Positions 35,070 to 38,372 of a stretch of 64,000 bases of DNA are shown here, piece by piece. The notes beneath the pieces are model-generated. The model made no database searches. It was given only the letters and a program-made list of their open reading frames with translations, and was not told where the DNA came from. The translations under genes were made by a program, and so were the position numbers. This DNA is from Chloroherpeton thalassium ATCC 35110 (lineage in GTDB: Bacteria > Bacteroidota > Chlorobiia > Chlorobiales > Chloroherpetonaceae), in the NCBI RefSeq assembly GCF_000020525.1, contig NC_011026.1, positions 1,408,001 through 1,472,000 on the forward strand. The letters are read 5' to 3'. Positions within the stretch are counted from its first letter, which is position 1; every line of letters begins with the position of its first letter.

Positions 35070-35138
35070 TCTGTCATCGATAGCGGGTAATTTTTCCGAA
35101 GTGGAAAAAAATAATTTTTGAATGACAAACTTGCGCAT

Positions 35139-35224
35139 TGTCATGCTGAGCCAGCTTCGGCGAAGCATCCATATCCATGTGTTCGGTAAAATTGGAATCT
35201 TCGGCAAGCAGCCTCAGAATGACA
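35139..35224. repeat. Imperfect inverted-repeat element (REP-like)
   Basis: An 86-base element with termini TGTCATGCTGAG and CTCAGAATGACA (inverted, one mismatch). The arms match the pattern TGTCAT-N-CTGAGC..GAAG..TC seen as dispersed intergenic repeats in many genomes, and resemble 52251-52315. It lies between deoC and the ABC gene. Confidence 0.65.
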
Positions 35225-35336
35225 TGATTCTTTTTTATCATCGGTAGCTAGACTTGGGACGAGTAAGCCAAGAATCCACAAGCCTGACAAATGGACGGCT
35301 TTATTGTTTTTTTAACCTCAATCTTGAACCGCTACC

Positions 35337-36424: not shown

Positions 36425-36733
36425 ATGGTTATGTTTAGGATGTTCTCTCATTTTCTGGGGCATTCCTCTGAAACTTCAGCTCAGAAACAGATGATGGTTC
36501 AAGCCATTGAAGAACCAGTCGTTGAAGTCGAGGCGGAGGAAGAAGTCAGGCAGATCAACTGTGCAACGGCTTGCATGAATTGTGATAATTATGATGATGG
36601 CCGTCATCATTGCAAAAAAATGGGATATCCAATTCCTCATGATTTGTCACTGGCAAATCCCTGCAAAGGAAACAACTTTACGCTAAGAGTATTTAAAGGC
36701 GACCGTCTTGCGCAACTTCGAAGAATGCACTAA
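36425..36733 (+). CDS. Small cysteine-rich protein, unknown
   Basis: Not recognised. The 102 residues have an N-terminal helix, an acidic Glu/Val-rich linker (VVEVEAEEEV), and a compact cysteine cluster: CATACMNCDNYDDGRHHC then NPC, giving five Cys and two adjacent His. A metal- or [Fe-S]-binding role is possible but unproven. The frame starts upstream at 36371; the ATG at 36425 follows AGGA (36410-36413) at 11 bases. Its last codons (LAQLRRMH) and its terminator lie in the first copy of an exact 89-bp repeat. Confidence 0.6.
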   Translation: MVMFRMFSHFLGHSSETSAQKQMMVQAIEEPVVEVEAEEEVRQINCATACMNCDNYDDGRHHCKKMGYPIPHDLSLANPCKGNNFTLRVFKGDRLAQLRRMH

Positions 36734-36796
36734 GGCAAGATTGTGTTGGAAATCAACTAAAAGTTTAAGCAGACATTAAAACCGTCTGCTTTTTTT
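36708..36796 (+). repeat. 89-bp direct repeat, copy 1
   Basis: Copy 1 covers the last eight or so codons of the cysteine-rich gene, its stop and the intrinsic terminator. It is identical to 37324-37412 over 89 bases; identity ends in the T-tract. Confidence 0.95.
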
Positions 36797-36798
36797 TT
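36767..36798 (+). terminator. Rho-independent terminator, copy 1
   Basis: An 8-bp stem AAGCAGAC / GTCTGCTT with a 9-base loop and a run of T, closing the transcript of the cysteine-rich gene. Confidence 0.9.
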
Positions 36799-36880
36799 AA
36801 ATAGTTATGCAGAAAAAATTTCCCTTATATTTGCAATCTCTAAAACAATAAATTCATCATTATAACCCTACTCATTCAAA

Positions 36881-37304
36881 ATGAAAAATTTGTTATTCCT
36901 CTATTTTTTAACGCTATCTGTGATTTTTACTACGGGTTGCGCTACAGTTTTCAAAGGTTCTGATTCAGAAGTGAAGTTGCTTGGAGTTAGTAGCGCTACT
37001 GAGGTTCGCCTTGGTGGTAAAAATGGCAAAAAAATAAAAAACTCAGGATACAGAATATGCATCTCCCACGGGAGCGTTCATGACGGGAAAGCGTTTTGTT
37101 CTTGATGCAAACAAGTCTTACTTGCTGCATGTTAAAGACGCCGAATACGAAAGTTCAGAAGTCTTGGCTTCAAAAGTAAGTCCTACCTATCTTTTCTTTG
37201 ATATATTATTTGGGTTAGTTCCACTTATTATTGACTATGGGACAGGTTCTATTTACTATTTTCAGAACGTAGAGATTGAAAAAGAAGCCCCTCAGAATCC
37301 GTAA
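36881..37304 (+). pseudogene. Lipoprotein gene split by a frameshift
   Basis: Two frames appear to belong to one small lipoprotein. The first starts MKNLLFLYFLTLSVIFTTGC (lipobox TTGC, Cys20), then ATVFKGSDSEVKLLGVSSA and VRLGGKNGKKIKN. The second carries GKRFVLDANKSYLLHVKD, FFDILFGLVPLIIDYGTGSI and YYFQNVEIEKE. The join is in an A-rich run near 37029-37040: restoring one A gives a continuous reading through KKTQDTEYASPTGAFM. Either a sequencing error, a real inactivation or slippage. The gene lies between the two copies of the 89-bp repeat. Confidence 0.65.
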
Positions 37305-37323
37305 TTTTTGTCTTTTCATTTTG

Positions 37324-37412
37324 TTGCGCAACTTCGAAGAATGCACTAAGGCAAGATTGTGTTGGAAATCAACTAAAAGTTTAAGCAGACATTAAAACCG
37401 TCTGCTTTTTTT
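37324..37412 (+). repeat. 89-bp direct repeat, copy 2
   Basis: Second copy of the end-of-gene plus terminator segment at 36708-36796, offset 616 bases. It carries the coding tail without the gene body. Confidence 0.95.
37383..37412 (+). terminator. Rho-independent terminator, copy 2
   Basis: The same AAGCAGAC / GTCTGCTT stem and T-run as copy 1, now downstream of the frameshifted lipoprotein. Confidence 0.9.
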
Positions 37413-37565: not shown

Positions 37566-38372
37566 ATGGATACATCCTCATATATTTTTTGGGACATGAG
37601 TCCCGACATGTTCAGTTTGGGGCCAATTACCATTCGTTGGTACGGTGTTTTTTTTGCGCTCTCTTTTTTGTGTGGCTTATACCTCATGACCAAAGTGTTT
37701 GAGCATGAAAAAAAGCCGGAAGACGATATCAATTACCTTTTTTATTACATGATTGCCGGCACGGTGATCGGAGCGCGTTTGGGTCACTGCTTCTTTTATG
37801 AGCCGGATTACTACCTTGCGCATCCCGCCGAAATTATAAAAGTTTGGCATGGCGGTTTGGCCAGTCACGGCGGTGTGCTTGGGATTCTCACAGCCGTGTA
37901 TTTTTATTCGCGCAGCCGACCGGAGCAGTCACTTGCTTGGGTTTTAGACCGCATCACGCTACCTGCTATGCTCGGCGCGGGTTTGATTCGTTTAGGAAAT
38001 TTGTTCAACTCTGAAATCATCGGCATACCCACCGATGTGTCGTGGGCATTTATCTTTGCTCGCGTCGATCTGCTGCCTCGCCATCCCGTCCAGCTTTATG
38101 AATCGATTGTCTACTTTCTCATTTTCGGCTTTCTGATGCTCGCTTATTGGAAATGGGATTGGGGGAAGCAGCGTGGCTTGCTTTTAGGAACAATACTCAC
38201 GAGCGTATTTTCAGCCCGATTTTTACTTGAATTTTTTAAAACGCGTCAAGCCGATTACGGCCACGACCTGCCATTGAGCGTCGGCCAGTGGCTCAGCATT
38301 CCAGCTGTCATCATCGGCGTGCTTCTGATTTTTCAAAGTGTGAAGCAAGCGCAGTTGGAAAAGACGAGCTAA
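37566..38372 (+). CDS. lgt: Prolipoprotein diacylglyceryl transferase
   Basis: Membrane enzyme that transfers diacylglycerol to the lipobox cysteine, the first step of lipoprotein maturation. The 268 residues begin with a hydrophobic region after SPDMFSLGPITIRWYGV. The hallmark VWHGGLASHGGVLG (HGGL motif) and the signature RLGNLFNSEIIG are both present. Multiple transmembrane segments. ATG start. It fits a genome with many lipoproteins, of which this window holds about ten. Confidence 0.96.
   Translation: MDTSSYIFWDMSPDMFSLGPITIRWYGVFFALSFLCGLYLMTKVFEHEKKPEDDINYLFYYMIAGTVIGARLGHCFFYEPDYYLAHPAEIIKVWHGGLASHGGVLGILTAVYFYSRSRPEQSLAWVLDRITLPAMLGAGLIRLGNLFNSEIIGIPTDVSWAFIFARVDLLPRHPVQLYESIVYFLIFGFLMLAYWKWDWGKQRGLLLGTILTSVFSARFLLEFFKTRQADYGHDLPLSVGQWLSIPAVIIGVLLIFQSVKQAQLEKTS

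What the first reader, a model, noticed from the sequence alone, without database searches (positions are those of the whole stretch)
36708..37412. Exact 89-bp direct repeat bracketing a 616-bp insert-like segment
36708-36796 is identical to 37324-37412. The repeat holds the last codons of the cysteine-rich gene, its stop and the whole intrinsic terminator. Between the copies lies only a small lipoprotein gene. This is what a tandem duplication, or insertion of a cassette carrying its own copy of the terminator, would leave. Recombination between the copies would remove the segment in one step.
Basis: seen in the sequence. Interest (0 to 1): 0.6.

Follow-up and report, generated by a model that had tools for sequence, protein, structure and literature searches.

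The report
Gene insertion with duplicated target terminator
A small, probably broken lipoprotein gene seems to have been spliced in behind a host gene, and the event copied the last 89 bases of that gene, terminator included, to the far side; the same scar, at other genes of this bacterium, brackets a restriction system and a toxin-antitoxin pair, so it is a recognisable but already described way for genes to enter chromosomes.

Summary
The left copy is the native end of the cysteine-rich gene: its coded tail (RLAQLR) is conserved in other Chlorobiales. The right copy is therefore the duplicate. The lipoprotein gene between them is broken by a frame change and is absent from 40 related genomes, while scattered homologs occur elsewhere in the phylum. 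In about half of the same genome I found the same geometry at 2-3 further sites: ksgA's 3' end (87 bp, identical) around a TdeIII-type restriction-modification pair; a mutase gene's 3' end (about 108 bp, 84%) around a RelE-type toxin/HTH antitoxin pair; possibly a 37-bp terminator around a porin-like gene. This matches 'insertion with long target duplication', described from Helicobacter pylori. Best reading: a ~527-bp foreign piece was inserted, the 89-bp target was duplicated, the host gene stayed intact, and the insert gained a terminator. A copy of the 89 bp made past an already resident gene is not excluded, because no empty-site strain is held. New member of a known kind; modest interest.

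The parts
36425..36733 (+). host gene: small cysteine-rich protein (C-x2-C ... H-x-C ... NPCKG motif), likely start ATG 36425 or 36431; longest ORF from GTG 36371
   Evidence: aligned with 8 relatives of other Chlorobiales, conserved motif and C-terminal RLAQLR; beside the ABC ATPase gene in L030, L034 and L036
36708..36796 (+). left 89-bp copy: native 3' end of the cysteine-rich gene, stop codon, spacer and intrinsic terminator
   Evidence: exact repeat; coding part conserved across genera
36767..36798 (+). left intrinsic terminator: stem 36767-36774/36784-36791, T run to 36798
   Evidence: sequence, fold
36797..37323 (.). 527-bp inserted segment, 34.9% GC against a genome mean of 45% (lowest 4% of genome stretches of that length)
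   Evidence: no other copy in the genome
36826..36833 (+). TAnnTTTG, a Bacteroidota-type -7 promoter-like box upstream of the lipoprotein gene (weak: 21 such sites on the + strand of the window)
36881..37105 (+). lipoprotein gene, N-terminal part (signal peptide with TTGC lipobox); homology to the family ends near 37040, after which it reads out of frame
37038..37304 (+). lipoprotein gene, C-terminal part in the +1 frame
37324..37412 (+). right 89-bp copy: derived duplicate, no gene body before it; now terminator of the lipoprotein segment and insulator before lgt
   Evidence: exact repeat; unlike flanks
37383..37412 (+). right intrinsic terminator: stem 37383-37390/37400-37407 and T run
   Evidence: sequence, fold
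37566..38372 (+). lgt (prolipoprotein diacylglyceryl transferase), next gene downstream
   Evidence: Pfam LGT, E 2.6e-68

Best explanation
[quoted passage not shown] A foreign piece of about 527 bp carrying a small lipoprotein gene was joined into the chromosome at the terminator of the cysteine-rich gene, and the 89 bp of target (gene end, stop, terminator) ended up on both sides. Shown: exact repeat, native left copy, insert absent from relatives, same geometry around restriction-modification and toxin-antitoxin modules in this genome. Inferred: that the event was a break (or an exposed long single strand) repaired with capture of foreign DNA and re-synthesis of the target on the second side. 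The position at a gene's 3' end leaves the host gene whole, gives the insert a terminator and shields lgt from read-through. The lipoprotein gene has since lost its frame (or had lost it on arrival, or the frame break is a sequencing error).
For: Exact 89-bp repeat, four unlike flanks; only two copies in the genome. Left copy encodes the conserved RLAQLR tail found in seven of eight relatives. Lipoprotein: no clear homolog in the 40 other genomes (best E 0.096) but homologs in 13 of 393 other genomes sampled across the phylum. Same geometry elsewhere in 1.66 Mb of this genome: ksgA 3' end, 87 bp identical, around a TdeIII-family restriction enzyme plus a DNA methylase; mutase gene 3' end, 108 bp at 84%, around RelE plus HTH. 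Neither module lies within about 1.5 kb of those genes in the relatives looked at, apart from one marginal 60-aa match. The published pattern has this form (PMC1643837; PMC3031569).
Against: No strain with an empty site is held, so the order of events is inferred. The described insertions mostly carry restriction-modification genes; this one carries a lone lipoprotein gene. The site is also a synteny breakpoint: in relatives a BadF-type ATPase gene follows, here that gene is at genome position 939827, so the repeat might be part of a larger rearrangement.
Confidence: 0.6

Rival explanations
1. Local copying: the lipoprotein gene was already between the cysteine-rich gene and lgt, and a replication or repair template switch placed a second copy of the 89 bp behind it.
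For: Geometry is the same; the duplicate gives the lipoprotein gene a terminator, which could be selected; the cysteine-rich gene and lgt are in a lineage-specific order.
Against: Does not explain why the same geometry brackets foreign modules at ksgA and the mutase gene; lipoprotein gene absent in relatives.
Confidence: 0.2
2. Campbell-type integration: a small circle (or concatemer) carrying the 89 bp and the lipoprotein segment integrated by one homologous crossover in the 89 bp, for example re-entry of a circle excised in a sister cell.
For: Gives exactly two identical direct copies with the insert between.
Against: Needs a donor that already carried this species-specific 89 bp; no other copy known in the own genome. 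It only moves back the question of how the first insert arose.
Confidence: 0.1
3. Site-specific integration: the 89-bp copies are attL and attR of a tyrosine integrase that uses gene 3' ends; the insert is a decayed or non-autonomous element.
For: Integrases often use 3' ends of genes and rebuild them (general knowledge).
Against: No integrase-sized ORF in this insert nor between the ksgA copies; at the mutase gene only an unassigned 572-aa ORF without Pfam match is left. The repeats at the cysteine-rich gene and ksgA share no more than a 6-base word, as expected by chance.
Confidence: 0.04
4. Assembly artefact: reads collapsed or duplicated at the repeat.
For: Only one assembly of the species was available to me.
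Against: Single contig of 3,293,456 bases; all four flanks differ, and parallel structures occur elsewhere in the genome.
Confidence: 0.04

Closest known systems
Insertion with long target duplication (Nobusato, Uchiyama, Ohashi, Kobayashi 2000, Gene 259:99-108; H. pylori)
   Same: Insert without transposase or integrase, flanked by direct copies of host target, long (around 100 bp, from memory) and variable; in this genome a restriction-modification pair at ksgA shows it in the classical form.
   Different: Here the insert is a lone, frame-broken lipoprotein gene, the target is a gene end with its terminator, and no empty-site strain is available to prove the direction. The original paper was not readable here; it is known through PMC1643837 and PMC3031569.
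Integrative elements of tyrosine integrases at gene 3' ends
   Same: Direct repeats made of a gene's 3' end bracket the element.
   Different: No integrase, no common core, insert only 527 bp.
Tandem duplication by slippage or unequal exchange
   Same: Direct identical copies close to each other.
   Different: The spacer is not repeated; only the 89 bp are.

Membership tests
Insertion with long target duplication | long direct copies of target sequence at both ends of the insert | tested here: met
   89/89 identity, left copy is native gene end
Insertion with long target duplication | related strain or genome with one copy of the target and no insert | tested here: inconclusive
   no sister strain found; relatives lack the lipoprotein gene but have other downstream genes
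Insertion with long target duplication | insert lacks transposase/integrase and terminal inverted repeats | tested here: met
   only lipoprotein ORFs; longest inverted exact match between the insert's end 60-mers is 9 nt and not terminal
Insertion with long target duplication | association with restriction-modification genes (frequent, not obligatory) | tested here: not met
   none at this locus; met at ksgA in the same genome
Integrase att-site element | integrase gene inside, or shared att core with sister elements | tested here: not met
Tandem duplication | whole unit including spacer repeated | tested here: not met

The most novel reading that the evidence does not exclude
This lineage has an active, unidentified process that inserts non-autonomous gene cassettes (lipoprotein, restriction-modification, toxin-antitoxin) at gene 3' ends with 40-110 bp target duplications, keeping the host gene and supplying the insert with its terminator.
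Probability: 0.1. Interest if true: 0.6.

Novelty: new member of a known kind. Interest (0 to 1): 0.35.

Why it matters
Long target duplications are a suspected route by which genes without any transposase enter chromosomes, and the mechanism is still open as far as I know. A single genome with several scars of different age (two identical pairs, one at 84%), all at gene ends, one of them around a lone lipoprotein gene, suggests that the pattern is not confined to restriction-modification genes and offers sites to test it outside Helicobacter.

Tried and rejected
Further copies of the 89 bp in the genome: none. Lipoprotein C-part relatives on plasmids or phages: none. Pfam/NCBIfam names for the cysteine-rich protein and the lipoprotein pieces: none. 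Empty site in a sister genome: the one other genome of the same family lacks the cysteine-rich gene, and a scan of one genome for each of 84,980 species gave only other genera. Common core in the repeats as integration site: at chance level for the pairs with the 89-bp repeat; the longest shared word, 8 nt between ksgA and the 37-bp terminator, gives P 0.07. Other repeat pairs in the survey were mostly coding paralogs, CRISPR-like arrays or multi-copy TGTCATTCTGAG-type repeats and were set aside.

Full report
Observation. The two 89-base stretches 36708-36796 and 37324-37412 are identical, 616 bases apart start to start. They are the only exact repeat of 24 bases or more in the window, and chance is excluded. 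All four flanks differ, and the own genome (one contig, 3,293,456 bases) holds no third copy. Size and gene content fit Chloroherpeton thalassium ATCC 35110; that name rests on my memory, not on a tool result.

Which copy is native. The repeat begins inside the codons for R-L-A-Q-L-R-R-M-H-stop of a small cysteine-rich protein. In relatives of other Chlorobiales families the same protein carries G-N-R-L-A-Q-L-R-(A/S)-(L/M) at its end in seven of eight aligned sequences, and in three relatives the gene lies directly after the same ABC ATPase gene. The left copy is therefore the old gene end. The right copy has no gene body before it and is the duplicate.

What lies between. The 527 bases hold one lipoprotein gene whose reading frame changes near 37040: the N part runs 36881-37105, the C part is open from 37038 to 37304. 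Homologs in other Bacteroidota are single ORFs of about 121-149 aa, so this copy is a pseudogene unless the base count is a sequencing error. No clear homolog was found in the 40 other genomes of the order, nor on plasmids or phages. The segment has 34.9% GC, lower than 96% of equally long genome stretches, though partly intergenic segments are usually AT-rich.

Surroundings. In the nearest genome held (same family) the order is thiL, ftsY, deoC, ABC ATPase, BadF-type ATPase, without the cysteine-rich gene; in another family ABC ATPase, cysteine-rich gene and BadF-type ATPase follow each other (L036). Here the BadF-type gene lies at genome position 939827 and lgt follows instead. The repeat therefore sits at a lineage-specific junction.

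Not an isolated scar. I surveyed stretches amounting to 1.66 Mb (about half the genome) for two-copy direct repeats. Eight pairs remained that are not multi-copy repeats or lie deep inside coding repeats; besides the finding, two share the geometry '3' end of a gene here, same sequence without the gene there, foreign module between'. At ksgA, 87 identical bases bracket a TdeIII-family restriction enzyme and a DNA methylase; the gene now ends ...LYEQV, the far copy goes on ...LYEKVKEA and is probably the original tail. At a gene for a methylmalonyl-CoA-mutase-like protein (named from its sequence; no domain search was run on it), about 108 bases at 84% bracket a RelE-family toxin and an HTH protein, an older case. 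In the relatives examined these modules are absent within about 1.5 kb of the two genes, save one marginal 60-residue match. A weaker further case is a 37-base terminator repeat around a porin-like gene.

Explanation. The common geometry is that of insertion with long target duplication, found by comparing two H. pylori genomes and often tied to restriction-modification genes (described in PMC1643837, and PMC3031569). The original paper could not be read here. The step I infer and cannot show is the mechanism: most simply, capture of foreign DNA during repair of a break, with the target copied on both sides. Gene ends may be common sites simply because duplication there leaves the host gene intact.

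Rivals. A second copy of the 89 bases placed behind an already resident gene gives the same final sequence; only a strain with the empty site or with one copy can decide. Circle integration, integrase att sites and assembly error are less likely, for the reasons listed. Zero differences in 89 bases put an upper bound of about 3.3% on divergence since the duplication, unless gene conversion has kept the copies alike.

Verdict. Observation confirmed; 'insertion' supported, 'tandem duplication' not. New member of a known kind, made somewhat more interesting by the restriction-modification and toxin-antitoxin parallels in the same genome.

Noticed in passing
L093:11217-13868 (genome 1351217-1353868): TdeIII-family restriction-modification pair inserted at the 3' end of ksgA with an exact 87-bp duplication; the gene's last codons differ from the far copy's tail.
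   Followed up: partly
L117:9609-12697 (genome 1009609-1012697): RelE-type toxin/HTH antitoxin pair and an unknown 572-aa ORF bracketed by a decayed (84%) copy of the 3' end of a methylmalonyl-CoA-mutase-like gene.
   Followed up: partly
L090:17029-18798 (genome 897029-898798): Exact 37-bp terminator repeat after a FecR-domain gene and after the following porin-like gene.
   Followed up: partly
L087:3906-4514 (genome 403906-404514): Tandem duplication of about 275 bp containing a strong terminator (three terminator copies) behind a dehydrogenase-like gene.
   Followed up: no
L092:3880-5561 (genome 1203880-1205561): A 36-77 bp repeat (AAGGGTTTTAACCCGCTTCAACTTTC...) in three copies, with complementary ends such as GCATACAAC/GTTGTATGC, separates small unrelated genes; may be an integron-type cassette array.
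   Followed up: no
L064, L065, L067, L077 and, by translation, window 35074-35241: Multi-copy interspersed repeats of the TGTCATTCTGAG...GAAGAATCC type, in local arrays.
   Followed up: no
window 36425-36733: Small cysteine-rich protein (CxxC...HxC...NPCKG) conserved in several Chlorobiales families, no Pfam or NCBIfam match.
   Followed up: partly
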